A stretch of 64,000 nucleotides of DNA from Blastococcus aggregatus. GTDB taxonomy: Bacteria; Actinomycetota; Actinomycetes; Mycobacteriales; Geodermatophilaceae. The first letter of the stretch is position 1; every line of letters starts with the position of its first letter. This document shows, in pieces, positions 19,853-39,736 of this stretch. Made by a program: the position numbers and the translations under genes. The stretch is taken from contig NZ_OBQI01000003.1 in the NCBI RefSeq assembly GCF_900221005.1, positions 124,001 to 188,000 on the forward strand, read 5' to 3'. The notes beneath the pieces were generated by a model that was not told the origin of the DNA, searched no databases, and saw only the letters and a list, made by a program, of their open reading frames with translations.

Positions 19853-19937
19853 GTCCGGGTGGCGGAATGGCAGACGCGCTAGCTTGAGGTGCTAGTGCCC
19901 TTTATCGGGCGTGGGGGTTCAAGTCCCCCCTCGGACA
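19853..19937 (+). tRNA. tRNA-Leu (anticodon GAG)
   Basis: An 85-base class II tRNA. The acceptor GTCCGGG (19853-19859) pairs with CTCGGAC (19930-19936) with one G-T pair. The anticodon arm is CTAGC-TTGAGGT-GCTAG, giving anticodon GAG. A long variable arm (TGCCC...GGGCG) and the T arm GGGGG-TTCAAGT-CCCCC follow. The discriminator base is A and CCA is not encoded. The integrase gene points at its 3' end, so it is the probable insertion site of the mobile element. Confidence 0.97.
19900..19937 (+). other. Probable attachment site (attL) in the 3' end of tRNA-Leu
   Basis: Tyrosine integrases of actinobacterial elements commonly recombine within the 3' half of a tRNA gene and leave the tRNA intact. 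Here the integrase gene starts 100 bases away with its 3' end facing the tRNA, the usual geometry. The matching attR copy should lie at the other end of the element; I noticed none in the window, so the site and its borders are inferred. Confidence 0.5.
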
Positions 19938-19943
19938 CAGCCT

Positions 19944-20038: not shown

Positions 20039-21241
20039 TCAGCCCTCGAGCAGGGCGGCAAACCGGTCGGCAGCCTGGCGCCCCATGCCGGGGTGGACGT
20101 GCTGGTAGACGGTGAGCGTGATCGTGGCGCTGGCGTGGCCCAGGCGCTCCGAGACGACCTTCACTGGCACGCCGTCGGCCAGCAGCAGGGTGGCGTGCGT
20201 GTGGCGGAGGTCGTGCAGCCGGATCATCGGCAGCCGCTCCTCCCCCAGCGCCTTCCGCGCCTGGACGACCTGGCCGGTGAATCGGCGGGAGAACCGCTCG
20301 GGGTGCCGATGGGTGCCGTCCGAGTTGCTGAGTACGAGCGCCGAGTCACGCACGAGGTCGAGCGCCAGCAGTCCGCGAGCTGCGCGGTAGGCGCGGAGCG
20401 CGGCCACGGTGCCCGCGTCCAGATCGACGACGCGTGACTGGCCCCTCTTGGTCGGGCCCTCGACCAGCTGTTCTCCGGCGCCCTTGGTCTTCACCACGCC
20501 GACACTGCGGCGGACGGCAAGCCGGCCGGCGTCCAGGTCCACATCGCGCCAGCGCAGGGCCAGCGCCTCTCCGCGGCGCATCCCGGTAGCCGCGAGCAGT
20601 CGCCAACCCATGGCGAAGTCCCGGTCGTAGGCCTCCGCCCAGCCAAGGAACCGACCGAGCTCGGCCGCGGTCCACGCCTGCATCTCCGGTGGACGGGCCT
20701 CCGATGGGCTCGGCGGTGTCGATCGGTCGGTCGGGTTGACCGAGAGCCGCCCCTGTTTGACTGCGTCGCTCAGTGCCGACCGAAGGATCGTGAACACGTA
20801 GCGCACCGTGCGCGGGGAAAGGCCGCCCTGGCCGTCGGCTCGGCCGGACTCCTCCAGCCTGCGCATCCAGGCGTCCACCGCCGGACCGGTGAGCCGGGCC
20901 ACCGGCTGTGCACCGAGGTGTGGATCAACGTGCAGCCGAATGTTCTTCCGGTAGGAGGCCAGCGTGGCCGGGCTGAGTCGCTGTCCTTGGATCCACTCGG
21001 CCAGGTATGCATCGAGTCGCTGCTTCGACGGCTCGACCCACTCCCCTACGTCAGTCTTGCGGACCTCCGCGCGCAGAGCCGCAGCGGCGTCTTTCCTGGT
21101 CTTGAAGCCGCGCTTGAGGACGACGCGCTTTGTCCCGTCGGCCCGCTGGGCCGTGAATTTGATCAGGAAGCGCGGACCAGCTTTGGTCATGTACTCGCTG
21201 ATCCCGCCCTCGCCCGCCTGCCGTCTCCGTGGCTTCGCCAT
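20039..21241 (-). CDS. int: Tyrosine-type site-specific integrase
   Basis: 400-residue phage-type integrase. The N-terminal AP2-like arm-binding part has TKAGPRFLIKFTAQRADGTKRVVLKRGFKTRKDA. The SAM-like core-binding domain follows with LDAYLAEWIQG and SYRKNIRLHVDPHLGAQPVARLT. The catalytic domain has Arg in ATGMRRGEALALRW near residue 220, HDLRHTHATLLL near 343, LGHASATIT, and the nucleophile Tyr in TVYQHVHPG near 378. The start at 21241 is chosen because GGAGG stands 8 bases upstream; an in-frame ATG at 21271 lacks this. No excisionase gene is recognisable beside it. Confidence 0.95.
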   Translation of the reverse strand: MAKPRRRQAGEGGISEYMTKAGPRFLIKFTAQRADGTKRVVLKRGFKTRKDAAAALRAEVRKTDVGEWVEPSKQRLDAYLAEWIQGQRLSPATLASYRKNIRLHVDPHLGAQPVARLTGPAVDAWMRRLEESGRADGQGGLSPRTVRYVFTILRSALSDAVKQGRLSVNPTDRSTPPSPSEARPPEMQAWTAAELGRFLGWAEAYDRDFAMGWRLLAATGMRRGEALALRWRDVDLDAGRLAVRRSVGVVKTKGAGEQLVEGPTKRGQSRVVDLDAGTVAALRAYRAARGLLALDLVRDSALVLSNSDGTHRHPERFSRRFTGQVVQARKALGEERLPMIRLHDLRHTHATLLLADGVPVKVVSERLGHASATITLTVYQHVHPGMGRQAADRFAALLEG

Positions 21242-21951
21242 CGCAGACCTCCATCGTTCGACCCAGCGCACCCGCTGCCAGCCGGATGCCTGCTATAGGG
21301 AGCCACTGGCTACGACTACGGAACAACCAGCGGCAGCCCGACAGCCAGCACCGGCTTGCATCTGTGGACGCGACTCGACGCTGTGGACCACGGTCAGCAA
21401 CCCAACCGCGCGGCCGAGCGCCAGTACCCGCGAAACTCTTCACGAGCGGGCTACCGAGTTCCTCCCGAACTTCTCCGGTAAGGCCTGCCGGGGATAGTTC
21501 TCGCGCGGACGAAGTCGATCGCCTGCCTCGGCACGCCGTTGACGCGACGGAGGTTGCGGCCATGAAGGGGTACGGCGAGATGCCCAGGCTTCCAAGCTGG
21601 CCATGCCGGTTCGATCCCGGTTACCCGCTCTCTGTCCTCACCAGCGAATTCATTCATCTGCCCAGTTCAAGCGGGTAGTCATCAGCGTTTCCTGCCTCAA
21701 CCGTGGTGACCTCTGTTGGCCTCCGACCGCCCAGTTTTGCCCCTGCTGAGGCACGACGGCGTCTGCCTCGTTTCCGCGCCTTGCCGCTCCACTCGGTCTA
21801 ATCGGCTCGCCGTCGCCACGGCCAGCGGGGCGGCTCCCGCCACGGGTTTGGGCCGCGGACCAGCCAGATCAGCAGCCGCCACCCCACCACCGGCGGGCAA
21901 GCTGCCGTGCTTGACACGTCGACCGAGCGCAGCCTAGGGGCCGGTGTCATC
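21242..21951. other. Gene-poor stretch between integrase and WhiA-like genes
   Basis: About 700 bases in which I see no convincing protein gene. Short open frames exist on both strands but have no family pattern or ribosome site. One of them (21451-21657, minus) merely translates tRNA antisense. The only recognisable content is the tRNA-Gly fragment at 21584-21629. The remainder could hold integrase arm sites and regulatory sequence. Confidence 0.5.
21584..21629 (+). pseudogene. 3' fragment of a tRNA-Gly (anticodon TCC)
   Basis: The anticodon arm CCAGG-CTTCCAA-GCTGG (21584-21600, one mismatch at the loop end) gives anticodon TCC. A 4-base variable loop and a complete T arm GCCGG-TTCGATC-CCGGT (21605-21621) follow, then the 3' acceptor strand TACCCGC (21622-21628) and discriminator T. 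The upstream bases do not form a D arm, and the acceptor 5' strand pairs only partly, so this is not a working tRNA. A conserved 3' half with a lost 5' half is what tRNA-targeting elements leave behind as an att duplicate. Confidence 0.7.
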
Positions 21952-22932
21952 TCAAACACCCATCATGGTGTCGTTGACGACGGATCCCGTGTCCGGGATG
22001 CCCAGCTCCTTGGCCCGGTTGTCGGCCATTGCCAGTAGCCGGCGGATGCGCCCGTGCACGGCGTCCTTGGTCATCGACGGATCGGCCCGCTGCCCGAGTT
22101 CCTCCAGTGATGCCTGATTGAACTTCAGCCGCAGCCGCCCGATATCGAGAAGGTGCTTGGGCGCGTCCCCGGCCAGGATCTCCATCGCCCGCTCCACTCG
22201 TGCGCTCGTGGCCACTGCTGCCCGCGCCGAACGGCGCAGATTAGCGTCGTCGAAGTTGGCCGGCCGGTTGGCGGTCGCGCGGACCTCACGGCGCATGCGC
22301 CGCTCCTCCCACGCAAGCATGGCGTGGTGCGCGCCCATGCGGGTGAGTAGGGCGCTGATCGCGTCGCCGTCGCGGACGACCACTTGATGGGCCCCGCGGA
22401 TCTCGCGGGCCTTCGCGGCGATACCCAGGCGGCGGGCGGCACCGACGAGCGCCATCGCCGTTTCAGGACCGGGACAGGTGATCTCCAGCGAGGACGATCG
22501 CCCCGGCTCGGTGAGCGAGCCATGCGCGAGGAACGCCCCGCGCCATGCCGCCTCGAGGTCGCGGATGCCACCAGAGACAACCGACGGCGGCAGACCGCGT
22601 ACCGGCCGGCCGCGCTGGTCGACCAGACCGGTCTGGCGAGCCAACCCCTCGCCGTGCTTGGCAATCCGGACGAGATAGCGAACGCCGCGCCGAGTATTAC
22701 CGTCGGCGAGGACGCTGACCCCACTGGTGTAGCCGTAGACCTCGCTGATGTCACGGCGCAGGCGGCGCGCGACCGAGCCGGCGTCCAGTTCGGCCTCGAT
22801 GATCACCCGGCCGCCCACTATGTGCACCCCACCGGAAAGCCGGAGGAGCGCGGTGACCTCAGCCTTGCGCTCGGAGTTGTTCGTAATCCCGACCCGGGAG
22901 AGCTCGTCCTTGACCATGGCAGTCATCGCCAC
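21952..22932 (-). CDS. WhiA-like DNA-binding regulator carried on the element
   Basis: 326-residue full-length homologue of the actinobacterial sporulation regulator WhiA, whose N-terminal domain derives from LAGLIDADG homing endonucleases and whose C-terminal HTH binds DNA. Diagnostic segments are [12 protein letters not shown] at the start, [80 protein letters not shown], and the HTH end [26 protein letters not shown]. The GTG at 22932 is set by GGAGGG upstream and matches the length of native WhiA. Chromosomal whiA normally sits after uvrC, rapZ and yvcK; here it is beside an integrase, so this is a mobile extra copy. It is divergent from the GmrSD-like gene. Confidence 0.88.
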
Positions 22933-23137
22933 GGCGACCACCCTCCGCCCGTCTGCAGTCCGGGGCGCACATGCTGGGTGGCACTGCCTCTCACTGAGAC
23001 AGCAGACCACATCACAGGGAGTCCACCGACCACGACGGGCGAGCCTCCTCCTGCACACGCGCTGAACCGCCACTGGCGGGTCTCGACAGAGGTCGGCGAC
23101 GCATGTCCGCGCCGTCGGCGCCCGGCATCATGGGCAT

Positions 23138-25009
23138 GTGGACGCCAAGACCTACCCGCTGCAGGACATCCTCAAGCCGGAGCGCCGGTACCTCATTCCA
23201 ACGTTCCAGCGAGACTACGAGTGGACGCTCGACGGCCAGTGGAGGCTCCTCTTCGAGGACTTGGAGTCGACCGCCGATCGGCTCATGGAGGTCCGCACCA
23301 GCGGCGCGGAAGGGGCCGCACTGAAATCAAAGGAGCAGAGCGTCTCGCCTCACTTCCTAGGCGCCATAGTGTGCGCGAGCTTGCCATTCGCCACAGGAGG
23401 CGTGGCGCTGCGGTCCGTCATCGACGGGCAACAACGGCTCACCACGGTGCAGCTCCTGGTCCGCGGCCTGCTCGACGTGCTGGCCGAGAACGACTCCGAT
23501 CGAACGAAGTCCGTGCGTCGGATGCTTTTCAATCCCGATGATGTCGTCGAGTCGCCGGATGAGATCCACAAGCTCTGGCCGCGACGCAAGGACCGTGAGC
23601 TCTGGCCTGCCGCGGTGAGCGATTCGATTCCGATCTACGATGGGAATTCCGATCACCTCTACCTTAAGGCCCGCAAGTACTTCTCAGACGCGGCGAGGGA
23701 CTACGCCACCGACGAGGACGGCGAGGTGGAGCCCTCGCGTCTGGTTGCCCTGGCCGACGCACTGTCGAGTCTTTTCAAACTGGTCGTTATCGATCTCGAC
23801 GACAACGACGATGCTCAGGTCATCTTCGAGGTACTCAATGGCCGTCAGACGCCCCTGTCGGCGATAGACCTCGTGAAGAACCTTTTGTTTCTTCGCGGCG
23901 AGCTCGCCGAGGACGACGTCGAGACCCTGTACGAGCGCCACTGGGCACACTTTGATGAGCCGTGGTGGAAGCAGGAGGTCGGACGCGGACACGCCCAGCG
24001 TGGTCGCCGCGACGCCCTTCTGTCCGTATGGCTAACGGCGGCAACGGGCATCGAGGCCAACGTGGGACATCTCTATCGAGAAGCTAGGGAGTACCTCGAT
24101 GGTGGCCCGAGCACAGAGGCGGTGCTGCAGCAGCTCAGCACGTTCGCCAACGCCTATCGGGCAATCTACGGAGCCACGCCCGTTAACGAGGACGTGGTGG
24201 CGGCCGCGTACCAGCGGATCCGAGCGCTGGACATCACCACCGCAGTCCCCCTGCTCGCATGGCTCCGCACGCTCTCGAAAGACACCCTTTCGGCGGCGGA
24301 CCACGTCCGCGCCGTTCGCGCCGTTGAGTCGTGGTCACTTCGCCGCGCCTACGTGGGCTGGCAGACACGCGGCTACGGCACCCACCTCACCAGGGTGCTC
24401 CGCGAAGCCAAGCTCGCTGCCGAGAAGGACCACGATGTCGCGGACGCCGTGATCAACGGGTTGAAGGGTGGTGCACTCGACTGGCCGAAGGACACTGACA
24501 TCGAGGAGGCATTCCTGAGCCGCCGCTTCTACGACGGCATGGCTCAGGCGCGAATCCGTCTGCTGCTCGGAGCGATCGACCACCGACTGCGATCAGAAGA
24601 CCCGAATGAGCCGGCCGCAGTTGTCACGTACGACAACCTCCAGATCGAGCATGTCATGCCGCAATCTTGGCAGCCCCACTGGCCGCTCACCGACGAGGCG
24701 AATGCCACCGTCGCCAGGGATGAATCCGACCCGCTCTGGATCAAGTTGGACTCCGAACGTCGCCGGCGCATCGACCGGCTTGGGAACCTGACGCTCGTCA
24801 CCAGCACCTTCAATCGTGGAGTGTCCAACTTGGGCTGGTTGACCAAAAAGCTCGAGTTCGAGAAACAGAAGTCGCTTGCCATCAACTATGATATCGCGAC
24901 AACTAGCCATTGGTCCGAGGCCTCGATCGATGGTCGGGCTAAGAGCCTAGCCGCGGCCGCGATCCGCATTTGGCCGAAGCCCGAATCGCTGCTCTCCGCG
25001 GACTCTTAA
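23138..25009 (+). CDS. GmrSD-like restriction protein (DUF262 plus DUF1524)
   Basis: 623-residue single-chain protein. The N-terminal DUF262 domain shows YPLQDILKPERRYLIPTFQRDYEW and the ParB-like signature VIDGQQRLTTVQLLVRGL, followed by VIFEVLNGRQTPLSAIDLVKNLL. The C-terminal DUF1524 HNH-type nuclease has the IEHVMPQSWQ motif (His-Ile/Val-x-Pro) and RIDRLGNLTLVTSTFN. GmrSD enzymes are type IV restriction systems cutting DNA with modified, often glucosylated, cytosine; many fused relatives are uncharacterised. The GTG at 23138 is the only start near the domain. The gene is visibly more AT-rich than its chromosomal neighbours, consistent with transfer. Confidence 0.85.
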   Translation: MDAKTYPLQDILKPERRYLIPTFQRDYEWTLDGQWRLLFEDLESTADRLMEVRTSGAEGAALKSKEQSVSPHFLGAIVCASLPFATGGVALRSVIDGQQRLTTVQLLVRGLLDVLAENDSDRTKSVRRMLFNPDDVVESPDEIHKLWPRRKDRELWPAAVSDSIPIYDGNSDHLYLKARKYFSDAARDYATDEDGEVEPSRLVALADALSSLFKLVVIDLDDNDDAQVIFEVLNGRQTPLSAIDLVKNLLFLRGELAEDDVETLYERHWAHFDEPWWKQEVGRGHAQRGRRDALLSVWLTAATGIEANVGHLYREAREYLDGGPSTEAVLQQLSTFANAYRAIYGATPVNEDVVAAAYQRIRALDITTAVPLLAWLRTLSKDTLSAADHVRAVRAVESWSLRRAYVGWQTRGYGTHLTRVLREAKLAAEKDHDVADAVINGLKGGALDWPKDTDIEEAFLSRRFYDGMAQARIRLLLGAIDHRLRSEDPNEPAAVVTYDNLQIEHVMPQSWQPHWPLTDEANATVARDESDPLWIKLDSERRRRIDRLGNLTLVTSTFNRGVSNLGWLTKKLEFEKQKSLAINYDIATTSHWSEASIDGRAKSLAAAAIRIWPKPESLLSADS

Positions 25010-25708: not shown

Positions 25709-28420
25709 TTGAGGCTGAACCTGAGAGCCGTCGAGGAGCGCGTCGCCCGGCTCGGAGGTCGCGAGCTCTATGACCGCGAGTTCATCTTCGATCTACTTCT
25801 CGCGTACGGGAAGCCCCAAGGCAATGTCACGCGCCTGCGCAACGGGTCGTTGAGCGTCGCGTCCGACAAGGCCACCGAGGTGGCGCAGAAGAATGTCGTG
25901 TACTTCAAGGAGACGACGGAGGACCCGCTCGCGGTCATCGATGAGCTGAAGACCTCCCCGGCCGTGGTGCGGTACCGCACCCGCTTCGTGATCGTCACCG
26001 ATTACACCGAGCTCCTGGCTGTCGACACGAAGACCGGCGAAAACTTGATGATCCCGATCCGGGACATCGATCAACACTTCACGTTCTTCCTGCCCTGGGC
26101 GGGGATGGAGAAGGCCCAGTACGTCACCGAGGCCCACGCGGACGTCAAGGCAGCGGAACGGATGGGCAAGCTCTGCGATGAGCTCCTCGTCGCCAACCCC
26201 GGCTTGATGGAGGGGACGCACGGGCGCCATGCGATCAATGTGTTTTTTGCCCGACTGCTGTTCTGCTTCTTTGCCGAGGACACAGAGATCTTCACAAAGA
26301 GCCAGTTCACCAACGCGGTCGGCTCCCACACCCAGGCCGACGGATCGGACGTCGGCGACTTCTTGTTCACGCTGTTCAGGGCCCTCGACACTGAGGACAA
26401 GGCTGACAAACCCACCCACCTGGCCGCGTTCCCATTCGTCAACGGCCGACTCTTCACCATCGCCCCCGAAGACGCGCTGCCGGCCTTCACGAAGTCGGCC
26501 CGCGACCTCCTGATCGCGCTGGGAACGCTCAACTGGAGCAAGATCAACCCCGACATCTTCGGGTCCATGTTCCAGGCAGTCGTCAATCCCCTCGAGCGCA
26601 GCGACCTCGGGCAGCACTACACGTCGGTGCCGAACATCCTCAAGACCATCGAGCCCCTATTTCTCGACGGACTGAGGGATGAGTTCGACGCAGGCTTCGA
26701 CTCAGTTCGCAGGCTCGAGTCGCTTCTGGAGCGGATCAGCGCAATCAAGGTTTTCGACCCCGCTTGTGGGTCTGGGAACTTTCTTGTCATCGCCTACAAG
26801 GAGCTCCGGAAACTTGAGCACGCCATTCTCGAGCGACTCGCCTACCTTCACCCCAAGCACCAGGTGCTGTTCACCGAGTCGAAGATCCACATCGAGAACT
26901 TCTATGGCATTGAGCTAGACGACTTTGCCACGGAGATCGCGATCCTCTCGCTCTGGATCGCAAAGCACCAGATGAACACGGAGTTCAGAGAAAAGTTCAA
27001 CGTTTCCATCCCGCTGATCCCCCTCAAGGAAGCCGGCCAGATCCAGCAGGGCAACGCAGCGCGGGTCGATTGGAACGCAGTCTGCCCCAACGACGACGGC
27101 GAAATCTACTTGATCGGGAACCCGCCATACAAGGGTGCGAAGGCGCAGACTAAGGAGATGAAGGCAGACTTCCCATTCGTCTTCGGAGGGCGCCCCTTCA
27201 ACAAAAACTTGGACTACATCGCCCTCTGGTTCGTGAAGGGAGCGGACTACATTGGGGGCACGAGAGCCGAACTTGCGTTTGTCGCCACCAACTCGGTCTC
27301 TCAGGGCGAGCATGTTGGGCTCATGTTTCCTATGATCTTCGCCGGGGGCATCGAGATCGGGTTCGCTTACACCTCATTCAAGTGGGCGAATAACGCCAGG
27401 CGCAACGCCGGAGTCACGGTCGTGGTCATCGGACTTCGCGTAGCTCGCTCAGGCCCGAAGTACCTATACACCGACGACCTGCAGATCGGTGCGAAGAACA
27501 TCAACGGCTACCTCGCGGACGGCGCGAACATCTTCATCGGCAGGCGTAACAGCCCGCTTGGCGCGAGTCGCCCGGTCATGGTGTTCGGGTCAATGCCTCG
27601 AGCCCGCGGGCTAGTAATCAGCCCCCGCGAGCGGCAGAGGATGATTGACAACGATCCGCTATCCTCCGAGTTCATCAAGGCTTACATTGGCACCAAAGAG
27701 CATGTGGATGGGCTAGAACGATATTGCCTTTGGATCGAAGATGGCCAAGTGGACTTAGCGCGCTCAGTGCCAGCAATCGCGGAGCGCCTTGCACAGGTGA
27801 CAGACGAGCGAGGCAAGAGCGACGCCGGCAGTACGGCTGCCTACGCGGCGAAGCCCCACCGCTTTGTGCAGATCAGCTACAAGCCCACTGACTCAATAAT
27901 CGTCCCCGCGGTGTCGTCCGAGCGACGCGATTATATCCCTATTGGGTACAGGGGCGCCGACACTATAATATCCAATCTCGCCTTCGCCGTCTACGACGCC
28001 GAGCCGTGGGTGTTCGCGCTGATCACGGCGCGGATGCACATAGTCTGGACTCGGGCAGTCGGCGGACAACACGAGTCGCGACTTCGGTACTCGAACACAA
28101 TCGTCTACAACAACTTCCTGGTACCGCCGCTCTCCGACGCGGTGAAGGAGCAGCTCACCGTCATGGCTCTGCGGGTTCTCGACGTCCGCGAGTACCACTG
28201 TGAGAAGACCCTCGCGGAACTGTACGACCCCGAACTGATGCCCGCTGACCTGCGAGCGGCGCACGCCGAGGTCGATGCGCTGGTCGACTCAATATACTCC
28301 AAGCGCAACTACGAGACCGATGAACAACGGTTGTCGGACCTCTTTGCTATGTATGAGGCGATGACTGCCGAGGAGGCCGCAAACGCGCCCGCCAAGAAGC
28401 AGAGGGGTAGGCGCAAGTGA
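25709..28420 (+). CDS. MmeI-like N6-adenine DNA methyltransferase
   Basis: 903-residue methyltransferase. The N-terminal third resembles the MmeI-type domain (VRYRTRFVIVTDYTELLAVDTKTGENL, then FFLPWAGMEKAQY) but shows no clear PD-(D/E)xK nuclease triad. A helical spacer follows. Motif I is FDPACGSGNFLVIAY near residue 349 and motif IV is NPPY near 470, giving an adenine N6 enzyme; the target-recognition part fills the rest. The start is TTG at 25709, preceded by GGAAGAGG. A 9-codon frame from 25683 ends in TGA overlapping this TTG. The gene couples to the helicase by a GTGA overlap, suggesting one restriction-like system of three genes. Confidence 0.85.
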   Translation: MRLNLRAVEERVARLGGRELYDREFIFDLLLAYGKPQGNVTRLRNGSLSVASDKATEVAQKNVVYFKETTEDPLAVIDELKTSPAVVRYRTRFVIVTDYTELLAVDTKTGENLMIPIRDIDQHFTFFLPWAGMEKAQYVTEAHADVKAAERMGKLCDELLVANPGLMEGTHGRHAINVFFARLLFCFFAEDTEIFTKSQFTNAVGSHTQADGSDVGDFLFTLFRALDTEDKADKPTHLAAFPFVNGRLFTIAPEDALPAFTKSARDLLIALGTLNWSKINPDIFGSMFQAVVNPLERSDLGQHYTSVPNILKTIEPLFLDGLRDEFDAGFDSVRRLESLLERISAIKVFDPACGSGNFLVIAYKELRKLEHAILERLAYLHPKHQVLFTESKIHIENFYGIELDDFATEIAILSLWIAKHQMNTEFREKFNVSIPLIPLKEAGQIQQGNAARVDWNAVCPNDDGEIYLIGNPPYKGAKAQTKEMKADFPFVFGGRPFNKNLDYIALWFVKGADYIGGTRAELAFVATNSVSQGEHVGLMFPMIFAGGIEIGFAYTSFKWANNARRNAGVTVVVIGLRVARSGPKYLYTDDLQIGAKNINGYLADGANIFIGRRNSPLGASRPVMVFGSMPRARGLVISPRERQRMIDNDPLSSEFIKAYIGTKEHVDGLERYCLWIEDGQVDLARSVPAIAERLAQVTDERGKSDAGSTAAYAAKPHRFVQISYKPTDSIIVPAVSSERRDYIPIGYRGADTIISNLAFAVYDAEPWVFALITARMHIVWTRAVGGQHESRLRYSNTIVYNNFLVPPLSDAVKEQLTVMALRVLDVREYHCEKTLAELYDPELMPADLRAAHAEVDALVDSIYSKRNYETDEQRLSDLFAMYEAMTAEEAANAPAKKQRGRRK

Positions 28421-30402
28421 GCGAGATCAAGAAGCCACCCAACGTCGTCGACGTCACCTACGCCCGCACGGGCGGCTCAGTGAACACCGACGCGATGGGC
28501 ATGCGCGAGATGCAGCAACGCGTCTTCGCCAAACGCGAAGCGCAGCACCTGCTAGTCAAGGCTCCGCCGGCCTCGGGCAAGTCCCGAGCCCTGATGTTCG
28601 TGGCTCTCGACAAGCTCTACAACCAGGGTCGCAAGAAGGTCATCGTCGCGGTACCAGAGCGGTCGATCGGCGGGTCGTTTGCCTCGACGAGCCTCACCCA
28701 GTTCGGATTCTTCGCAGACTGGGAGGTGAAGCCGGAGCTCAACCTGTGCGACCCAGGCTCCTCGCAGGGCAAGGTCGGCGCCTTCATCAACTTTCTGAAC
28801 GGCCCCCTGGCGGTCCTAATCTGCACGCACGCCACACTGCGTTTCGCCTTCGAGAAGCTAACTCCAGACGCGTTCAACGGCACCGTGCTCGCGATCGACG
28901 AGTTCCACCACGTCTCTGCCGACACCGAAGCCAGTCGACTCGGCGCGCTTCTGCGCGATGTCATGAACGGCTCGGACGTTCACATCGTCGCGATGACCGG
29001 CTCCTACTTTCGCGGCGACTCGGTCCCCGTGCTAGCGGCCGAGGACGAGGCACGCTTCACGCCGGTCACGTTCAACTATTACGACCAGCTAAACGGTTAC
29101 GAGCATCTGCACTCGCTGGGCATCGGCCATCACTTTTACCAGGGCCGGTACACCGAGGCGATCGGTGAGGTCTTCGACCTGAACAAGAAGACAATTATCC
29201 ACATCCCGAACGTGAACTCGGGAGAGTCCACCAAGGACAAGATCGAAGAGGTCGGGTTCATCATCGACTCGATCGGCCACGTCGAGTCCACCGACCCTGA
29301 CACGGGGATCATCAGCATCCGCAGGTCCGACACCGGCGCAATGCTGCGCCTGGCCGACCTCGTGGACGACACGGACCAGAAGAAGCGCGCCGACACCCTG
29401 CACCACCTCTCTACCGTCGCCTCGAAGGACCGGGACGCCGTGGACGTGATCCTGGCCCTCGGGATGGCCAAGGAGGGCTTCGACTGGCCTTTCGCCGAGC
29501 ACGCCCTCACCGTCGGCTATAGAGCATCGCTGACTGAGGTCATCCAGATCATTGGTCGCGTCACCCGTGACTCGCCCGGCAAGGAGCACGCCCAGTTCAC
29601 CAACCTGATTGCCGAGCCGGACGCATCGCAGGGCGAGGTGAAGGTGTCGGTGAACAACATGCTGAAGGCCATCACGGCGTCGCTGCTGATGGAACAAGTA
29701 CTGGCCCAGAACTTCGAGTTCAAGACCAAGCGCAGCGGTGACGACGCTCCAACCCCGCCGAGTGTCATCAAAATCAAGGGATTCAAGGAGCCCAGCTCGG
29801 AGCGGGTCAAGCAGATCGTCGAGACGGACCTCAACGACCTGAAGGCGACCATCCTGCAAGACGACACGTTTGCAAAGGCCGCTGCTGGCTCGGTGGACCC
29901 CCAGACGACCAACAAGGTTCTGATCCCGAAGATCATCCGCGAGCGCTATCCCGACCTAGACGAGTCGCAGGTCGAGGAGTTGCGTCAGCAGGTGGTCGTG
30001 GACTCTGTCATCAAGAACGGCGAAGTCCGCGAAGTGGGCGACAAGCGGTTCATCAGAATGTCGGAGAAGTTCGTGAACATCGACGACATCAACATTAATC
30101 TCATCGACTCCGTCAACCCATTTCAGCGAGCCTTCGAGGTCATCTCCAAGTCCGTCAGGCCTTCCGTACTGCGTATCATCTCGGATGCGATTACCGCGAC
30201 CAGGGTCGAGATCACCGAGGAAGAGACGCTGACTACCTGGCCAAAGATTCAGCAGTGGGCCAAGGTCAACGGGCGCAAGCCAAACGTGCGCTCCGATGAT
30301 CCGACCGAGAAACGGTACGCCGAGGTAGTGCTGTTCCTGCAGAAGAAAAAGCAAGAGCGCGATGCCGCTCAGCGCGATGCCGAGGCTCCGGACGACGTAT
30401 GA
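28417..30402 (+). CDS. DEAD/DEAH-type superfamily 2 helicase of the methyltransferase system
   Basis: 661-residue SF2 ATPase. Walker A is KAPPASGKSRALM near residue 49, motif II is AIDEFHHVS near 160 (a DEFH box), motif III is AMTGSYF, and motifs V and VI are AKEGFDWPFAEHALTVGYR and VIQIIGRVTRD. The C-terminal 250 residues are mostly helical without a known domain. It probably moves along DNA and feeds the nuclease partner. It overlaps the methyltransferase by GTGA and the GIY-YIG gene by ATGA, so the three products are made together. Confidence 0.85.
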   Translation: MSEIKKPPNVVDVTYARTGGSVNTDAMGMREMQQRVFAKREAQHLLVKAPPASGKSRALMFVALDKLYNQGRKKVIVAVPERSIGGSFASTSLTQFGFFADWEVKPELNLCDPGSSQGKVGAFINFLNGPLAVLICTHATLRFAFEKLTPDAFNGTVLAIDEFHHVSADTEASRLGALLRDVMNGSDVHIVAMTGSYFRGDSVPVLAAEDEARFTPVTFNYYDQLNGYEHLHSLGIGHHFYQGRYTEAIGEVFDLNKKTIIHIPNVNSGESTKDKIEEVGFIIDSIGHVESTDPDTGIISIRRSDTGAMLRLADLVDDTDQKKRADTLHHLSTVASKDRDAVDVILALGMAKEGFDWPFAEHALTVGYRASLTEVIQIIGRVTRDSPGKEHAQFTNLIAEPDASQGEVKVSVNNMLKAITASLLMEQVLAQNFEFKTKRSGDDAPTPPSVIKIKGFKEPSSERVKQIVETDLNDLKATILQDDTFAKAAAGSVDPQTTNKVLIPKIIRERYPDLDESQVEELRQQVVVDSVIKNGEVREVGDKRFIRMSEKFVNIDDININLIDSVNPFQRAFEVISKSVRPSVLRIISDAITATRVEITEEETLTTWPKIQQWAKVNGRKPNVRSDDPTEKRYAEVVLFLQKKKQERDAAQRDAEAPDDV

Positions 30403-31592
30403 GCGCCAGCGACGAAGCGGGGTTGGCAGACGCCGTCGTCCCAGCCAGCATCGATGACATCCTCGACTCTGACATCGATGGCCTGCTGGACGGACCTGAG
30501 CGGGCCTTGAAAGTCACCTCAGCCGATCGCCTGAAGCGGGGATTCCTGGAGATCGTTGAGTTCCGACGTGCACACGAGCGGCTCCCGAGCTCTACAACGC
30601 GGGAGATTGCCGAACGCAGGCTCGGCGCCCGGCTCGACGGCATCCTCGCCAGCGAGGAGAAGATCGCTGCACTGAAGCCACTCGACGAGTTTGGTCTCCT
30701 GGAGACACCCGAGGCACCAGCGTCGCTTGACGACCTGCTCGGTGGCGACGACCTAGACCTGCTCGCTGACGAGTCCGGACTGCTGGACGTCTCCGACCTG
30801 CCGGTGCGCCGTCAGACTTACGACAGCGGGAACGCGGCGCGCCGCGAGAAGGCCCAGGATTTCGAGCGGTTCGAGCCGCTCTTTAAGCAGAAGCACGCCG
30901 AGCTGCGTGACGGTGTGAGCAAGCTGCTGCCCTACCCCGGCATGACCCACATCCTCCCTGGGGCCTTCTTCGTCCTCAACGGAGTCATGCTGTTCATCGC
31001 CGAGGTCGGTGAGACCGAATACAAGAAAACGACCGTGAGAGAAAACAAGCGCGAACGGCTCCGCTGCATCTTCGAGAACGGCACCGAATCTTCGATGTAT
31101 CGGCAGTCCCTAGGCATCAGGCTGAGCGACGAGGACGGCCAGATCGTCGTTAGGTCCGAGCCGCCCGAGATCCTGAGCGATGACCAGGTGAGCGGCTACA
31201 TCTACGTGCTTCGGTCCCTCAGCGCGGACCCGCAGATTGCTGGCATCAAGGACCTGTACAAGATCGGCTTTACACGCGGGTCGGTCGAACTCCGAATCAA
31301 GGACGCCGAGAAGTCGCCGACGTATCTGATGGCGCCAGTGGAGGTGGTGGCCAGCTACCGTACCTACAATCTCAAGGCGTCTGCCCTAGAGAACTTGCTG
31401 CACCGAGTCTTCGCAGAAGTCCGCCTCGACATCAGCCAGGTGGATCGCTGGGGCCGCGACTACGACGCGTCGGAGTGGTTTGTGGTCCCGAGGGCCGTGA
31501 TCGACCAGGCCATCGAACTTATCCAGTCAGGAGCGATCGTCCGCTACGTCTATGACGCAACGGCGCAGGGGCTCGTCGAGCGCGGCCAGTAG
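30399..31592 (+). CDS. GIY-YIG nuclease family protein (T5orf172-like)
   Basis: 397-residue protein. The first 130 residues are acidic with repeated DD and DLL clusters (SIDDILDSDIDGLLDG; SLDDLLGGDDLDLL) and may bind the helicase. The middle section has VLNGVMLFIAEVGETEYKK. The C-terminal GIY-YIG domain begins with GYIYVLRSLSA near residue 266 and DLYKIGFTRGSVELRIKDAE near 285, then ALENLLHRVFAEVRLD and a late EWFVVPR segment, the T5orf172 pattern. It is the likely DNA-cutting subunit of the methyltransferase-helicase system. Its stop codon lies inside a 19-bp tandem repeat. Confidence 0.85.
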   Translation: MSASDEAGLADAVVPASIDDILDSDIDGLLDGPERALKVTSADRLKRGFLEIVEFRRAHERLPSSTTREIAERRLGARLDGILASEEKIAALKPLDEFGLLETPEAPASLDDLLGGDDLDLLADESGLLDVSDLPVRRQTYDSGNAARREKAQDFERFEPLFKQKHAELRDGVSKLLPYPGMTHILPGAFFVLNGVMLFIAEVGETEYKKTTVRENKRERLRCIFENGTESSMYRQSLGIRLSDEDGQIVVRSEPPEILSDDQVSGYIYVLRSLSADPQIAGIKDLYKIGFTRGSVELRIKDAEKSPTYLMAPVEVVASYRTYNLKASALENLLHRVFAEVRLDISQVDRWGRDYDASEWFVVPRAVIDQAIELIQSGAIVRYVYDATAQGLVERGQ

Positions 31593-33771: not shown

Positions 33772-34249
33772 ATCGCTACTGAAGCTTGACCAAGATCAAG
33801 TGCCACACACCTCATGCACTTGCGGCGAGAAGGTCGCCTATTGCATCTACTGGGACTCGCACCACAGCAGTGAGACGCCGGCATCTCGAGTATTGCTGCA
33901 GCTCAGCGCACCCGTGGTCGTGCCCGAGTCGGTCGCATCTCGGACAACCAAGCGCCTTCTGGTAGCCGACCTTCCTGCCAACCTGGTGCGCGTCCTCATC
34001 CGTCAGATGCCCCGGTCCATTCCCGGGCAGAGGTGCAGCAACGCGACCGGCCCGACGGTCGTCGTGCATCCCCGGCGCCTGCACGGAACCGCTGGCCACC
34101 ACGATCCCTCCTGCCGGGCCGTAAGGAGCCAGACCCGCGACGGCGCTTTCCCGCACCGATGAGCCGCGAGTAAGTGGAGAAGGCAGCCGAACAGGAGAAC
34201 TACGCGAGAAGCACTGGAGGTCTCGTTCCTACCGTCCGCAGCCGTGGTG
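33772..34249. other. Non-coding stretch upstream of the relaxase gene
   Basis: About 480 bases. Open frames exist on both strands, but none shows a domain, a ribosome site or a family pattern. As the region just before the relaxase gene it is a reasonable place for the origin of transfer, but I could not pick out a nic motif by eye. Confidence 0.4.
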
Positions 34250-37200
34250 ATGTCGCTGCACAAGCTGACCGCGGGTGACGGGTACACGTACCTGACACGG
34301 CAGGTCGCGGCGCTGGATGCCACCGAACGCGGGCATGCCGGCCTGGGTGACTACTACTCACATCGGGGCGAGTCGCCGGGCGTCTGGACCGGCAGCGGCC
34401 TCACCGGGTTGCCCGCCGTGAGCGCCGGGCAACCGGTCGACGAGGCGCAGATGAAGGCTCTATTCGGCGAGGGGCGCCATCCCGACGCCGAGCGTCTGGA
34501 GCGGGAGGAGCTCGCCGCCGGACGGACGCCGGAGCAGGCGCGCGCCGCCGGCGCCCTCGGCCAGCCGTTTCTGGTCTACCCCACACCCGCGGACGGCTTC
34601 CGGGCGCGCTGCGCGCATGAGTTCGCTGCGGTCAACGCCGCCCGCGGGCTGCCACCCGATGCGCCCCTGCCGGCGCCCGAACGGGCCCGAATCCGTGGCG
34701 AGGTCGCACGCGGCATGTTCGCCGCCGAGCACGGCCGCCCACCCGCCGATGCCCGCGAATTGTCCGGGTTCATCGCCCGGGCGTCGCGGCCGGCGACGAA
34801 GGCGGTGGCCGGCTACGACCTGACGTTCTCGCCGGTGAAGTCGGTGTCGGCGTTGTGGGCGCTGGCACCCCGTGAGATCGCCGAACAGATCGAGGCCGCC
34901 CACCACGCCGCGGTTGCCGACACCCTGGCCTGGCTCGAGCGGCACGCCGTCTTCACCCGGCTGGGCGCCGGCGGGGCGCAGCAGGTGGACACCTCGGGGC
35001 TGATCGCCGCGGTGTTCACCCATCGCGACTCGCGCGCCGGTGATCCGGACCTGCACACCCATGTGGCGGTGAGCAACAAGGTGCAGGGCCGCGACGGGCG
35101 GTGGCGGGCGCTGGACGGGCGGGTGTTGTACAAGGCCAACGTCGCGGCCTCGGAGCGGTACAACACCCGACTGGAGGCCAATCTGGTGGCCGGGTTCGGG
35201 GTTCGCTTCGCCGAGCGTCCCGGCCGGGAGGACGGCAAGCGGTCGGTGCGGGAGATCGTCGGCCTCGACGCCCGGCTGCTGAGCGCCTGGTCCTCGCGGC
35301 GCCAGGCGATCGACGTCCGCCGCGGAGAGCTGGCCACCGACTTCCAGTCCGAGCACTCCCGGACGCCCACGGCATCCGAAGCGATCGCGCTCGCCCAGCA
35401 GGCCACGCTGGAAACGCGAGAGGCCAAGCACGAGGCCCGCTCGCTCGCCGAACAGCGGGCGGCCTGGCGAGAACAGGCCCACGACGTGCTCGGCGGGCCG
35501 ACGGCGGTGGCCGGCATGCTCGATGACGCCCTGCGCCCACGGGTCCGTGCCGTTGCGGTGGTGACCGATGCTTGGGTGCGCTCAGCCGCCGGCCGGGTGC
35601 TGGACACGGTCTCCGCGCAGCGCGCGACCTGGCAGGTCTGGCATGTGCGCGCCGAAGCCGAGCGGTTGGTCCGGGCCGCCGACCTCGCGCCGGATGTCAT
35701 CGATGCCGCGGTTGCGCAGGTCAGCGTGGCCGCGCTCTCACCTTCTCTGTCGATCCCGCTCCGCGAGTCGGACTCGGCGGTCGAGCCGTCGGAGCTGCGC
35801 CGCTCGGACGGCGCCAGCGTCTACACCGTCGCCGGTGCCCAGCTCTACACGTCCCAGCAGGTGTTGGACGCCGAGGCGCTGTTGCTGGCCGCTGCGGGAC
35901 GCGCCGACGGCCGCCAGGCTGATCCCCGGGTGGTCGAACTGGCGCTGCTGGAGGTCACCGCCAACGGCACCGAGCTCAACCCCGGCCAGGCTCAACTGGT
36001 CCGGGACCTGGCCGGCAGTGGGGTGGGGGTGCAGCTGGCTATCGCGCCCGCCGGTACGGGCAAGACCACCGCGCTGGCCGCGCTGGCCCGGGCCTGGACC
36101 GCCGCCGGCGGCAGCGTGCTCGGTCTGGCGCCGTCGGCGGTGGCCGCCGCCGGGCTGCGCGAGGCCGTCGCCGGCCACTGCGACACCGTGACGAAGTTGG
36201 TCTGGGCGCTGGACACCGGCGACCGGCCGGCCTGGGTAACCGACATCGGCCCCGGCACGCTGGTGATCGTCGACGAGGCGGGCATGGCCGGCACCCGCGA
36301 GCTCGCTGCCGTCGTCGACCACGTGCTGGGGCGGGGCGGGTCGGTGCGGCTGGTCGGCGATGACCGACAGCTGGCCGCGGTCGCCGCCGGCGGAGTGCTG
36401 GCCGAGATCGCCGCCACCCACGGCGCGGTGACGCTGACTCAGCTGGTCCGCTTCGCCGATCCGGCCGAGGCCGCGGCCACCGTCGCGGTTCGCGACGGCG
36501 ACACCACCGCCGTGGGCTTCTACCTCGACTCCGGCCGGGTGCATGTCGGAGATGCTGCCAACTGCGCCGAACAGGCCTACACCGCCTGGGCCGCCGACCA
36601 GGCCCGCGGCGTCGACGCCCTGCTGCTGGCCGCCACCCGCGAGAGCGTGACCGTGCTCAACGCGCGGGCCCGCACCGATCGACTCGCCGCCCTCGCTGGA
36701 CCGGCTGGCCGGGAGGTGGCGCTGGCCGACGGCACCCGGGCCGGCACCGGTGACCCGATCATCACCCGCACCAACGACCGGCGACTGCCGCTGGGCGCCG
36801 CGGATTGGGTGAAGAACGGCGACCGCTGGACCGTCACCGCCGTGCACGACGACGGCGCCCTCGCCGTCACCCACAACCGCAGCGCTCGGCGCATCACCCT
36901 GCCGGCCGACTACGTCGCCGACCACGTGCAACTGGGCTACGCGACCACTGTGCACGGCGCCCAGGGCGTCACCGCCGATACCTGCCACACCGTGCTCACT
37001 GGCAGCGAGAGCCGGCAGCTGCTCTACGTCGCGCTCTCCCGCGGCCGAACCGCCAACCACCTCTACCTGGCCACCGTCGGGGATGGCGAGCCGCACAGCA
37101 TCGTCACCCCCGCCGCCGTCCATCCACCCGCCGCCACTGACCTTCTGCTCGGCATGCTGGACCGCGACGGCGCGCAGACCTCGGCCACCGGCGCCCGCCG

Positions 37201-39736
37201 GGCGCTGGCCGACCCTGAAGAACAGCTGCACTCCGCGGCCGCCCGGTACGCCGACGCACTGCGGTTCGCCGCCGCCCACCAACTCGGCGCCACAGCTGCA
37301 GAAGCACTGGAAAACGCCGCCGAGCAGCTCCACCCTGGGCTGACCGGGGCTCCGGCCTGGCCCACACTGCACGGGCACCTGGCGCTGCTCGCCGTCAGCG
37401 GCACCGATCCCATCGCCGCCCTGCGAACGGCGGCAGCCAGACGCGAGCTGAACGGCGTCCGCGACCCCGCCGCCGTCCTCGGCTGGCGCCTGAACGCTCC
37501 CAGTCCCGGTCCGGCGGGGCCGTTGCCGTGGCTGCCCGGCACGCCGACGGCGCTTGCCGACGATTCGCACTGGGGCACCTACCTGGCCGCCCGCGCCCGC
37601 CACGTCACCGACTGCGCGACCCGGGTCGTCAACACCGCCGCCGCCATGACTCCGGCCAGCGCACCCACCTGGGCGCGGCCGCTGCTGGGCGCCGACCAGG
37701 CACGCCTGAGGGCCGAGCTCGCCGTCTGGCGCGCTGCGCTCGCCGTCCCCGACGGCGACCGGCGCCCCACCGGCCCGCCCCGCCCCGCGGTCGCCGAAAG
37801 CCGGCATCAGCAACGGCTGGACGACGCGGTGGCCGCCGCCATCCCGGCACTTGGAAGCTCAGGGTGGTCAAGGCTGGCCGACAGCATCGACCCCCGCGTG
37901 CGCCGCGACCCGCACTGGCCGGCCCTGGCCGAACGGCTCACGGCAGCCGACCGCGCCGGCCTGGACGCCGCCGGCCTGCTCGCCGCGGTGGCACAGCGAC
38001 CGCTGCCCGACGACCTGCCCGCCGCGGCCCTGTGGTGGCGACTCACCCCTCACCTGGCCCCGGCCACCGTCGCCGCCGGGCCGGGCGCCACCGTAGTCCG
38101 GCCGGACTGGTGCACCACCCTTCTGACGCTGCTGCCCGACGAGCACGGGCAGCGTGTGCTGGACACCCCCGCCTGGCCGGCCCTCGTCGCGGCGGTCACC
38201 GTCGGGATCCGCGACGGCTGGTCCCCCACCGACTTGCTCACCGCCGCGGTCGCCGGCCTGCCGTCGGCGGACGATGGCGGCCGGTCCGGGAACGAGCTGG
38301 CCGAAACGCTCGTCTTCCGGATCGCCGCCCTTATCGACCCCGCGCCCGTGCAAACGCCCGAGCCGCTACCGGACGACCTGCAGCCACCAGACGACGCGCA
38401 TCTGCTCCCACCGGCCGCCGACAACACAGCTCTCACCGGCGCCGTTTGGGCTTACAGGCCTGACGACGACGCCGAGCCCCCCGACCCCGACGTCGAATCG
38501 CCGCTGGTCGGACCGCGGTATTTCACCTCGGACCCCTTCGCCCGCGAGGAACCGGCCTGCGACGAGGCGGACTACCTGCTCGAGCAGCACTTCTGGGCCA
38601 CCGCCGTCGTCGGCCGCGACCGGCTGATCGAGCTCAACACCAAGGCGGCCGCGTTCTACACCGACCGCTACCACGACTCTTGGGCGCCGGACTACCTCCG
38701 CGAACGGTTGGGCACCGACCTCACCGCCGACCCGCGGTTCAGCCCCGGGTACGCCCCCGCCGGCTGGACCACCCTCCTCGACCACCTGCGGACGTCCGGC
38801 GCCACCGACACCGAACTGCTCGCCGCCGGCCTCGTCCAATGCGCCCGCACCGGGGCACTGATCGACCGATTCCGCGACCGGCTCATCTTCCCGATCCACG
38901 ACGCCGACGGCACCATCGTCGGGTTCATCGCCCGCCGCAACCCCGCCGCTGCCGACGACTGCCGTGCCGGACCCAAATACCTCAACACCCCCGGCACCGA
39001 CCTCTACACCAAGGGCGACCACCTGCTCGGGCTCTACGAAAGCCGGTCCGCGCTCGCTGCCGGTGCCGTCCCGGCCCTCGTTGAAGGACCGCTGGATGCT
39101 CTTGCAGTCACCCTCGCCGGTGACGGACGGACAGTTGGCGTCGCCCCCCTCGGCACAGCCCTCACCGATCGACAAGCCGACCTGCTCCGCCCCCACATCC
39201 GCGAGGGCAATCCGGGCATTCTCCTGGCTACGGACAACGACGCCGCCGGACAGAGGGCCGCCGAGCGCATCTTCTGGCAGCTCACCGCGCGCGGCGACGA
39301 CCCCCGCCGGCTCACCCTGCCCGACGGCCTCGACCCGGCCGACGTCCTCCATCGCGACGGCGTCGTCGCGCTGCGCACGGCCATCGAGACCTCAGACAGC
39401 CTCGCCGACGCCCTTCTCGACGCCCGCCTCACCCTGGCCCGAAGCGACAGGAACCCCTTGGCCATCCAGGCGGGAGTGCGTGACGCGGCAGCCATCATCG
39501 TCGCCACACCACCAGCCCGGTGGCTGGCACACATCGACCGAGTCACCGAGACTCTCGGTGTCCCCCTGGGCGCTGTCCACGCCGCCGTGCTGGACACCGA
39601 ACCGATCACCGCCAGGACTACGGCCAGTCCGCAGCAGGCGTCCCGGTTGGCGTTTCCTTACGACGATCCTCACCGGGCGGGCTATACGGGACGCCCGGCG
39701 CAGGACGCGCTGCCTGACCTGCCCTACTCCCGATAG
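34250..39736 (+). CDS. MobF-family relaxase fused to helicase and primase/toprim domains
   Basis: About 1,828 residues in three parts. The TrwC/TraI-type relaxase occupies the first 330: catalytic tyrosines in GDGYTYL and DYYSHRGESPGVWTGSG, and the metal HxH in DPDLHTHVAVSNK near 264-270. The SF1 helicase has Walker A APAGTGKTTAL near 600, Walker B VIVDEAGMAG, GYATTVHGAQGVTAD and YVALSRGRT. The C-terminal 350 residues resemble DnaG: RERLGTDLTADPRFSPGY, FRDRLIFPIHDADGTIVGFIAR, toprim EGPLDALAV near 1,612 and ATDNDAAGQ near 1,660. It would nick oriT, unwind the strand and prime its copy. The start could be ATG 34250 or a GTG at 34247 or 34244. Confidence 0.92.
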   Translation: MSLHKLTAGDGYTYLTRQVAALDATERGHAGLGDYYSHRGESPGVWTGSGLTGLPAVSAGQPVDEAQMKALFGEGRHPDAERLEREELAAGRTPEQARAAGALGQPFLVYPTPADGFRARCAHEFAAVNAARGLPPDAPLPAPERARIRGEVARGMFAAEHGRPPADARELSGFIARASRPATKAVAGYDLTFSPVKSVSALWALAPREIAEQIEAAHHAAVADTLAWLERHAVFTRLGAGGAQQVDTSGLIAAVFTHRDSRAGDPDLHTHVAVSNKVQGRDGRWRALDGRVLYKANVAASERYNTRLEANLVAGFGVRFAERPGREDGKRSVREIVGLDARLLSAWSSRRQAIDVRRGELATDFQSEHSRTPTASEAIALAQQATLETREAKHEARSLAEQRAAWREQAHDVLGGPTAVAGMLDDALRPRVRAVAVVTDAWVRSAAGRVLDTVSAQRATWQVWHVRAEAERLVRAADLAPDVIDAAVAQVSVAALSPSLSIPLRESDSAVEPSELRRSDGASVYTVAGAQLYTSQQVLDAEALLLAAAGRADGRQADPRVVELALLEVTANGTELNPGQAQLVRDLAGSGVGVQLAIAPAGTGKTTALAALARAWTAAGGSVLGLAPSAVAAAGLREAVAGHCDTVTKLVWALDTGDRPAWVTDIGPGTLVIVDEAGMAGTRELAAVVDHVLGRGGSVRLVGDDRQLAAVAAGGVLAEIAATHGAVTLTQLVRFADPAEAAATVAVRDGDTTAVGFYLDSGRVHVGDAANCAEQAYTAWAADQARGVDALLLAATRESVTVLNARARTDRLAALAGPAGREVALADGTRAGTGDPIITRTNDRRLPLGAADWVKNGDRWTVTAVHDDGALAVTHNRSARRITLPADYVADHVQLGYATTVHGAQGVTADTCHTVLTGSESRQLLYVALSRGRTANHLYLATVGDGEPHSIVTPAAVHPPAATDLLLGMLDRDGAQTSATGARRALADPEEQLHSAAARYADALRFAAAHQLGATAAEALENAAEQLHPGLTGAPAWPTLHGHLALLAVSGTDPIAALRTAAARRELNGVRDPAAVLGWRLNAPSPGPAGPLPWLPGTPTALADDSHWGTYLAARARHVTDCATRVVNTAAAMTPASAPTWARPLLGADQARLRAELAVWRAALAVPDGDRRPTGPPRPAVAESRHQQRLDDAVAAAIPALGSSGWSRLADSIDPRVRRDPHWPALAERLTAADRAGLDAAGLLAAVAQRPLPDDLPAAALWWRLTPHLAPATVAAGPGATVVRPDWCTTLLTLLPDEHGQRVLDTPAWPALVAAVTVGIRDGWSPTDLLTAAVAGLPSADDGGRSGNELAETLVFRIAALIDPAPVQTPEPLPDDLQPPDDAHLLPPAADNTALTGAVWAYRPDDDAEPPDPDVESPLVGPRYFTSDPFAREEPACDEADYLLEQHFWATAVVGRDRLIELNTKAAAFYTDRYHDSWAPDYLRERLGTDLTADPRFSPGYAPAGWTTLLDHLRTSGATDTELLAAGLVQCARTGALIDRFRDRLIFPIHDADGTIVGFIARRNPAAADDCRAGPKYLNTPGTDLYTKGDHLLGLYESRSALAAGAVPALVEGPLDALAVTLAGDGRTVGVAPLGTALTDRQADLLRPHIREGNPGILLATDNDAAGQRAAERIFWQLTARGDDPRRLTLPDGLDPADVLHRDGVVALRTAIETSDSLADALLDARLTLARSDRNPLAIQAGVRDAAAIIVATPPARWLAHIDRVTETLGVPLGAVHAAVLDTEPITARTTASPQQASRLAFPYDDPHRAGYTGRPAQDALPDLPYSR

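What the first reader, a model, noticed from the sequence alone, without database searches (positions are those of the whole stretch)
25709..31592. Three-gene methyltransferase-helicase-GIY-YIG system
An MmeI-like adenine methyltransferase, an SF2 helicase with a DEFH box and a GIY-YIG (T5orf172) nuclease are fused into one unit by GTGA and ATGA overlaps. This is not the standard type I, II or III layout, nor BREX or DISARM as I know them. The methyltransferase N terminus looks like MmeI but without an obvious nuclease triad, so cutting has probably moved to the third subunit.
Basis: partly seen in the sequence, partly recalled or inferred. Interest (0 to 1): 0.75.

Follow-up and report, generated by a model that had tools for sequence, protein, structure and literature searches.

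The report
DnmA-YeeB-YeeC type restriction operon
This is an intact, mobile copy of a widespread but poorly understood three-gene bacterial operon (a DNA-marking enzyme, a DNA motor and a protein of a DNA-cutting family) whose layout was already described in Bacillus subtilis and which most likely destroys unmarked foreign DNA.

Summary
Window 25709-31592 (+) encodes an MmeI-type adenine methyltransferase, an SF2 helicase and a T5orf172-type GIY-YIG protein, joined by GTGA and ATGA overlaps. Of 80 other loci kept from a helicase scan, 80 have the GIY-YIG-family ORF directly downstream and 71 the methyltransferase; the other nine reach a contig edge. The MmeI nuclease triad is at its place in none of 65 trio methyltransferases but in 16 of 19 comparators outside the trio.

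It is not unknown: this is the dnmA(yeeA)-yeeB-yeeC layout of B. subtilis; missing nuclease, partner genes and a type I-like idea are in print. The B. subtilis copy methylates GACGAG but failed against three phages; a Vibrio copy is reported to affect phage sensitivity.

Added here: a second triad loss coupled to a PLD-SNF2 motor; cargo genes partly shared with type I loci; an 85.6-kb element in tRNA-Leu carries this copy. Best reading: type I-like ATP-dependent restriction that cuts with the GIY-YIG subunit; cutting is undemonstrated.

The parts
25709..28420 (+). MmeI-type N6-adenine DNA methyltransferase with its own target recognition domain (DnmA/YeeA-like); N-terminal domain kept but without the PD-ExK triad
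   Evidence: Pfam MmeI domains; solved MmeI 5hr4_C E 5e-172 over residues 88-901; DPACGSG and NPPY-type motifs in 65 of 65 trio rows; triad not found
28417..30402 (+). SF2 helicase/translocase (YeeB-like) with GKS, DEFH, TGS and QxxGRxxR motifs
   Evidence: Pfam DEAD; the 14 motif columns checked are invariant in 37 of 37 rows; SF2 core by structure
30399..31592 (+). GIY-YIG (T5orf172/MUG113) candidate nuclease (YeeC-like): helical N-terminal region, SH3-like middle, C-terminal GIY-YIG domain
   Evidence: Pfam; Y269, G290, R299, E331 invariant in 35 of 35 rows, YIG reads K-I-G in 34 and K-V-G in one; Slx1 6sei_C Z 6.0, 101 residues, rmsd 5.1, a modest match
28417..28420 (+). GTGA overlap of methyltransferase stop and helicase start
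30399..30402 (+). ATGA overlap of helicase stop and GIY-YIG start
19853..19938 (+). tRNA-Leu(gag), attachment site of the carrying element; 24-bp core at 19917-19940 repeated at contig position 229488-229511, outside the window
20039..21271 (-). tyrosine integrase of the carrying element
   Evidence: Pfam Phage_integrase 2.6e-21
34244..39736 (+). TrwC/MobF-type relaxase-helicase with DnaG_N and Toprim primase parts, of the carrying element
   Evidence: Pfam TrwC 9.7e-93, DNAG_N 3.8e-25, Toprim_2 8.3e-14

Best explanation
A type I-like ATP-dependent restriction-modification system of the DnmA-YeeB-YeeC kind. The MmeI-type protein recognises an asymmetric site through its own TRD and marks one adenine. 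When it meets unmarked sites it recruits or switches on the SF2 motor, through its remodelled N-terminal domain or another surface; the motor moves along or remodels the DNA and the GIY-YIG subunit cuts. Shown: genes, order, domains, conserved active-site residues, missing PD-ExK triad. Inferred: recruitment, translocation, cutting by the GIY-YIG subunit, protection from phage or plasmid DNA.
For: Gene set kept in loci from many phyla and an archaeal MAG. Helicase and GIY-YIG profiles, searched separately, hit the same 3 of 394 class genomes, side by side. Motor columns invariant in 37 of 37 rows, GIY-YIG residues Y269, G290, R299, E331 in 35 of 35. None of 65 trio methyltransferases has the triad at its place, yet 31 positions of the first 180 are at least 90% conserved among them (I did not sort out which of these MmeI shares). 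Outside the trio the two complete triad-less MmeI-type proteins examined (L113, L130) both adjoin a motor of about 1,090 aa, PLD plus SNF2 by Pfam in L130 and its homologue in L113, while none of the 16 triad-bearing ones has a YeeB or YeeC homologue in the stretch seen (annotation; search). In 26 of 81 loci 471-4879 bases separate methylase and motor (one, L070, only because its methylase frame is broken); 20 of 43 listed ORFs there were scanned: AlbA_2 7, RhuM 4, Fic 2, Bro-N 2, others 5; RhuM and AlbA_2 relatives lie between annotated S and R genes of type I loci on two plasmids. Deletion of dnmA and yeeB homologues in a Vibrio is reported to raise sensitivity to some phages.
Against: The B. 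subtilis copy gave no protection against three phages and no effect on plasmid uptake, and its motif is not depleted in phage genomes. I know of no shown cutting by a YeeC-like protein. The YIG tyrosine is lysine in 35 of 35 rows, so the domain might only bind DNA. Cargo sharing with type I is thin: 7 of the 10 plasmid neighbourhoods viewed were not type I or III loci. The helicase structure match is generic.
Confidence: 0.62

Rival explanations
1. Modification-dependent block without cutting, as in BREX (recalled): the methyltransferase marks self, and the motor with the GIY-YIG protein as DNA binder stops replication of unmarked DNA.
For: The B. subtilis authors conclude that any restriction by the cluster must differ from canonical R-M. 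K replaces the YIG tyrosine in 35 of 35 rows. Kept active-site residues do not prove cutting.
Against: Y269, R299 and E331 are invariant in 35 of 35 rows; a nuclease-family partner also appears in the separate PLD-SNF2 case.
Confidence: 0.17
2. An orphan methylation system for gene control: helicase and GIY-YIG genes are relics carried along, as proposed for B. subtilis DnmA.
For: B. subtilis deletion results and gene regulation by GACGAG methylation.
Against: All three ORFs here are open, overlap and keep their motifs. Across the aligned loci the helicase is 59-91% and the GIY-YIG protein 35-77% identical to the window's, with invariant motif residues; relics should not look so.
Confidence: 0.13
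3. A self-contained type IIL enzyme (MmeI) that cuts with its own N-terminal domain, beside two unrelated genes.
For: Full MmeI domain set.
Against: Triad not found at its place in this protein or in any of 65 trio rows; the neighbours are not random.
Confidence: 0.03

Closest known systems
Bacillus subtilis dnmA(yeeA)-yeeB-yeeC
   Same: MmeI homologue without endonuclease motif, SF2 helicase and T5orf172/GIY-YIG protein in the same order
   Different: That copy is reported inactive against three phages, and its YeeB and YeeC are said to miss stretches near the C terminus; this copy is open in all three genes and sits on an integrative element. I did not align the B. subtilis proteins themselves.
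Type IIL R-M enzyme MmeI
   Same: Spacer, methyltransferase, TRD and C-terminal domains
   Different: Catalytic site D70, E80, K82 not found here; motor and candidate nuclease are separate proteins
Type I R-M (HsdM-HsdS-HsdR)
   Same: Methylation plus ATP-dependent motor; RhuM and AlbA_2 cargo between the corresponding genes in some loci
   Different: No separate S subunit; no nuclease domain found in the motor; GIY-YIG in a third gene
Type ISP (LlaBIII)
   Same: SF2 motor with adenine methyltransferase (recalled); 4xqk is among the Foldseek matches of the helicase
   Different: ISP is one polypeptide (recalled); here three genes, and the structural match is generic to SF2
MmeI-type methyltransferase + PLD-SNF2 pair (L113, L130)
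   Same: Triad-less MmeI-type methyltransferase next to a motor with another nuclease fold
   Different: Two genes, motor gene first, unrelated nuclease family

Membership tests
dnmA-yeeB-yeeC cluster | MmeI homologue lacking the endonuclease motif | tested here: met
dnmA-yeeB-yeeC cluster | SF2 helicase gene 1st and T5orf172/GIY-YIG gene 2nd downstream, same strand | tested here: met
   feature as stated in PMC9973331
dnmA-yeeB-yeeC cluster | Direct sequence homology to B. subtilis YeeA, YeeB, YeeC | not tested
   B. subtilis proteins were not fetched; only the MmeI_Mtase family rings in the B. subtilis control genome
dnmA-yeeB-yeeC cluster | m6A at an asymmetric site | not testable with these tools
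   needs long-read methylation data
Type IIL (MmeI) | MmeI spacer-methyltransferase-TRD-C domains | tested here: met
Type IIL (MmeI) | N-terminal PD-(D/E)XK nuclease site (D70, E80, K82 in MmeI) | tested here: not met
Type I R-M | Separate specificity subunit HsdS | tested here: not met
   the TRD lies inside the methyltransferase
Type I R-M | Motor subunit carrying its own nuclease domain | tested here: inconclusive
   Pfam finds only helicase domains in P0002; residues 430-661 remain unassigned, so a hidden domain is not excluded
Type I R-M | ATP-dependent cutting away from unmethylated sites | not testable with these tools
   biochemical
BREX | PglZ and BrxC partners | tested here: inconclusive
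   Only weak PglX matches of the methyltransferase; no PglZ among the window ORFs scanned, but not every ORF was scanned

The most novel reading that the evidence does not exclude
MmeI-type enzymes more than once gave up their built-in nuclease and turned its domain into a docking site for an ATP-driven motor with a new nuclease (GIY-YIG here, PLD in the SNF2 pair), making a distinct class of ATP-dependent restriction between type IIL and type I, with exchangeable type I-like cargo genes.
Probability: 0.4. Interest if true: 0.55.

Novelty: new member of a known kind. Interest (0 to 1): 0.32.

Why it matters
Yet its mechanism is undecided, and the best-studied copy appears inactive. An intact copy on a mobile element, with a testable recognition prediction and a second example of the same rewiring, gives a way to settle whether GIY-YIG proteins of this family cut DNA on command of a motor.

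Tried and rejected
Self-contained MmeI cutting: set aside because the triad is missing. Five of 65 trio rows (L026, L045, L050, L075, L076) match a loose motif somewhere in the stretch searched, but no row has E and K in the aligned columns. Those columns depend on the alignment: 4 of 9 plasmid comparators read DEK there, 3 GEK, 1 AEK and L130 GPR, because the D shifts by a few positions; I therefore counted comparators by motif.

How comparators were picked: nine plasmid proteins out of 60 listed of 462 records, taken among rows that match from about residue 90 on or at low identity; similar rows such as H108 and H111 were not fetched. Ten genome proteins are those with MmeI_Mtase above 95 bits in the phylum draw other than the window's own, the second place in G053, and G270 (cut by its contig end). 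L121 counts as triad-less but is short at its N terminus. L095-L112 (weak matches) appear only and are in no count.

Structure: the GIY-YIG model (pLDDT 83.9, pTM 0.45) has no PDB match at E<=0.001 by Foldseek; VIA-align gave Slx1 at Z 6.0 for the C-terminal domain and SH3-like matches for about residues 180-253, and its top row was an unrelated papain-like protease pair at Z 6.2. The helicase model (pLDDT 73.8) shows a generic SF2 core, with HsdR and LlaBIII among many; this does not single out type I.

DISARM and BREX: only partial PADLOC/NCBIfam matches of the methyltransferase. Type I cargo in print: one search gave one unrelated paper, so that point rests. Ten neighbourhoods viewed (five RhuM of 20 listed of 124 records, five AlbA_2 of 20 listed of 109): two type I, one that I read as type III-like, one DUF1156/PLD defence locus, one beside an annotated DNA methyltransferase, five none of these. 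Phage records: two matches, each 25% of the helicase. Insert ORFs: 20 of 43 listed were scanned; L070's is a piece of its methyltransferase.

Papers: PMC9973331, PMC7261158 and PMC12707154: passages by term search; PMC4833311: passages and the section DNA Cleavage; others: search listings only. Morgan 2009 and Makarova 2011 are not held and are cited through PMC9973331 and PMC7261158; for Piel et al. the paper cites a 2021 preprint, and the journal DOI that I tried from recall is not held. One search (MmeI + SNF2 + phospholipase D) found 0 papers; this covers only that library and those words.

Full report
What is there. Three ORFs on the + strand at 25709-28420, 28417-30402 and 30399-31592 overlap by four bases each, GTGA and ATGA. 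The first is a complete MmeI-type protein by Pfam (N, spacer, methyltransferase, TRD and C domains) and matches solved MmeI (5hr4_C) over residues 88-901 at E 5e-172. The second is an SF2 helicase with a DEFH box. The third carries a T5orf172/MUG113 GIY-YIG domain at its C terminus.

Is it a unit. In 80 of 80 the GIY-YIG-family ORF starts within 286 bases after the helicase (L077 in two pieces; L040 and L063 cut by the contig end), and in 71 of 80 the methyltransferase is found. Counting the window's own locus, the methyltransferase lies within 300 bases upstream in 45, 471-4879 bases upstream in 26 (one, L070, only because its frame is broken), and downstream in one (L078); the nine without it have 0-2406 bases of contig upstream. 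Searching helicase and GIY-YIG profiles separately in 394 genomes of the class hit the same three genomes, side by side; a same-genus genome (G660) has neither at the thresholds used. In the phylum draw only the window's genome of 296 has either. The unit is tightly linked and sporadic.

The missing nuclease. MmeI cuts with V69-D70...E80-M81-K82 (PMC4833311, section DNA Cleavage). None of 65 trio methyltransferases with an N terminus (64 loci plus the window) has E and K in the aligned columns; five match a loose motif elsewhere. Comparators outside the trio: 8 of 9 plasmid proteins and 8 of 10 genome proteins keep a D-x-E-x-K motif of the MmeI kind. Three do not: L121 is short at its N terminus; L113 and L130 are complete and sit beside a motor of about 1,090 aa, which in L130 has PLD and SNF2 helicase domains and in L113 is its homologue. 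So, among complete proteins examined, loss of the triad goes with an external motor plus another nuclease family in two different pairings. The trio's N-terminal domain is not decaying: 31 positions before residue 180 are at least 90% conserved (which of them MmeI shares was not sorted out). A new job such as docking the motor is inference.

Active sites. Both methyltransferase motifs are present in 65 of 65 rows; the 14 motor columns checked are invariant in 37 of 37; in the GIY-YIG protein G266, Y269, K288, G290, R299, N324, E331, H335 and W360 are invariant in 35 of 35. The YIG tyrosine is a lysine throughout. AlphaFold places an SH3-like fold in the middle and a GIY-YIG domain at the end that VIA-align pairs with Slx1 (Z 6.0, 101 residues, rmsd 5.1), a modest match.

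Cargo genes. In 26 of 81 loci DNA lies between methyltransferase and helicase (L070 apart, see above). Of 43 ORFs listed there I scanned 20 from 18 loci: AlbA_2+HATPase 7, RhuM 4, Bro-N 2, Fic 2, AAA_13, AAA_15, YhcG and M78/HTH one each, no match in one. On Aeromonas plasmid pE31A the order is M, PDDEXK, S, RhuM, R, and on Acidovorax pACP3.1 methyltransferase, S, ATP-binding protein, R; on an Aliarcobacter plasmid a RhuM gene lies between a methyltransferase and a DEAD helicase. Seven other neighbourhoods viewed were not type I or III loci. The parallel puts the trio helicase in the place of HsdR, but on few examples.

What is known. PMC9973331 and PMC7261158 (passages) describe dnmA(yeeA)-yeeB-yeeC in B. 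subtilis: DnmA methylates GACGAG, lacks the endonuclease motif, and is followed by a helicase and a T5orf172/GIY-YIG gene, an order that they find among DnmA homologues in other species. They credit Morgan et al. 2009 with noting this gene set and a type I-like idea, Makarova et al. 2011 with listing YeeB and YeeC homologues as putative antiphage genes of defence islands, and Piel et al. with raised phage sensitivity after deletion in Vibrio crassostreae. They found no protection in B. subtilis against phages Nf, phi29 and SBS-phiJ. The credited works were not read.

Setting. The trio lies on an element bounded by a 24-bp repeat of the tRNA-Leu(gag) 3' end at window 19917-19940 and contig position 229488-229511, 85,595 bases in all, with integrase, MobF-type relaxase and a TraG/TraD-type coupling protein. 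A GmrSD-type type IV restriction gene (23138-25009) is next to it. The trio genes have lower GC (60-63%) than the chromosome left of the tRNA (74.5%).

Verdict. Observation confirmed; interpretation partly supported; a new member of a known kind, whose mechanism is most likely type I-like with GIY-YIG cutting (0.62), not demonstrated.

Noticed in passing
L130:1264-7280 (Rhodococcus pyridinivorans pRJH4) and L113 (G074): Two-gene pair of a PLD-SNF2 helicase (1090 aa in L130) and an MmeI-type methyltransferase without the PD-ExK triad; possibly its own defence system. A search of the paper library for MmeI + SNF2 + phospholipase D found nothing.
   Followed up: partly
window 19917 to contig C6:229511 (beyond the window): 85.6-kb integrative element in tRNA-Leu with 24-bp repeats, carrying integrase, MobF-type relaxase and coupling protein, and in its right part (C6 about 203-227 kb) TctA transporter, Rieske dioxygenase and lyase genes.
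   Followed up: partly
window 34244-39736 (+): 1830-aa fusion of TrwC relaxase, helicase, DnaG_N and Toprim primase domains.
   Followed up: no
window 21952-23073 (-): WhiA-type regulator with N, LAGLIDADG and HTH domains on the mobile element, near the integrase.
   Followed up: no
window 23138-25009 (+): GmrSD-type (DUF262) type IV restriction protein directly upstream of the trio; best PADLOC models Orf5 and mREase_IV.
   Followed up: partly
window 39841-43440 (-): 1199-aa protein with a weak NACHT match (6.7e-8) on the element and no PADLOC match.
   Followed up: partly
L124:4692-8557 (Methylobacterium oryzae pMOC2): MmeI-type methyltransferase that keeps the triad and is followed by a phospholipase D family gene.
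   Followed up: no
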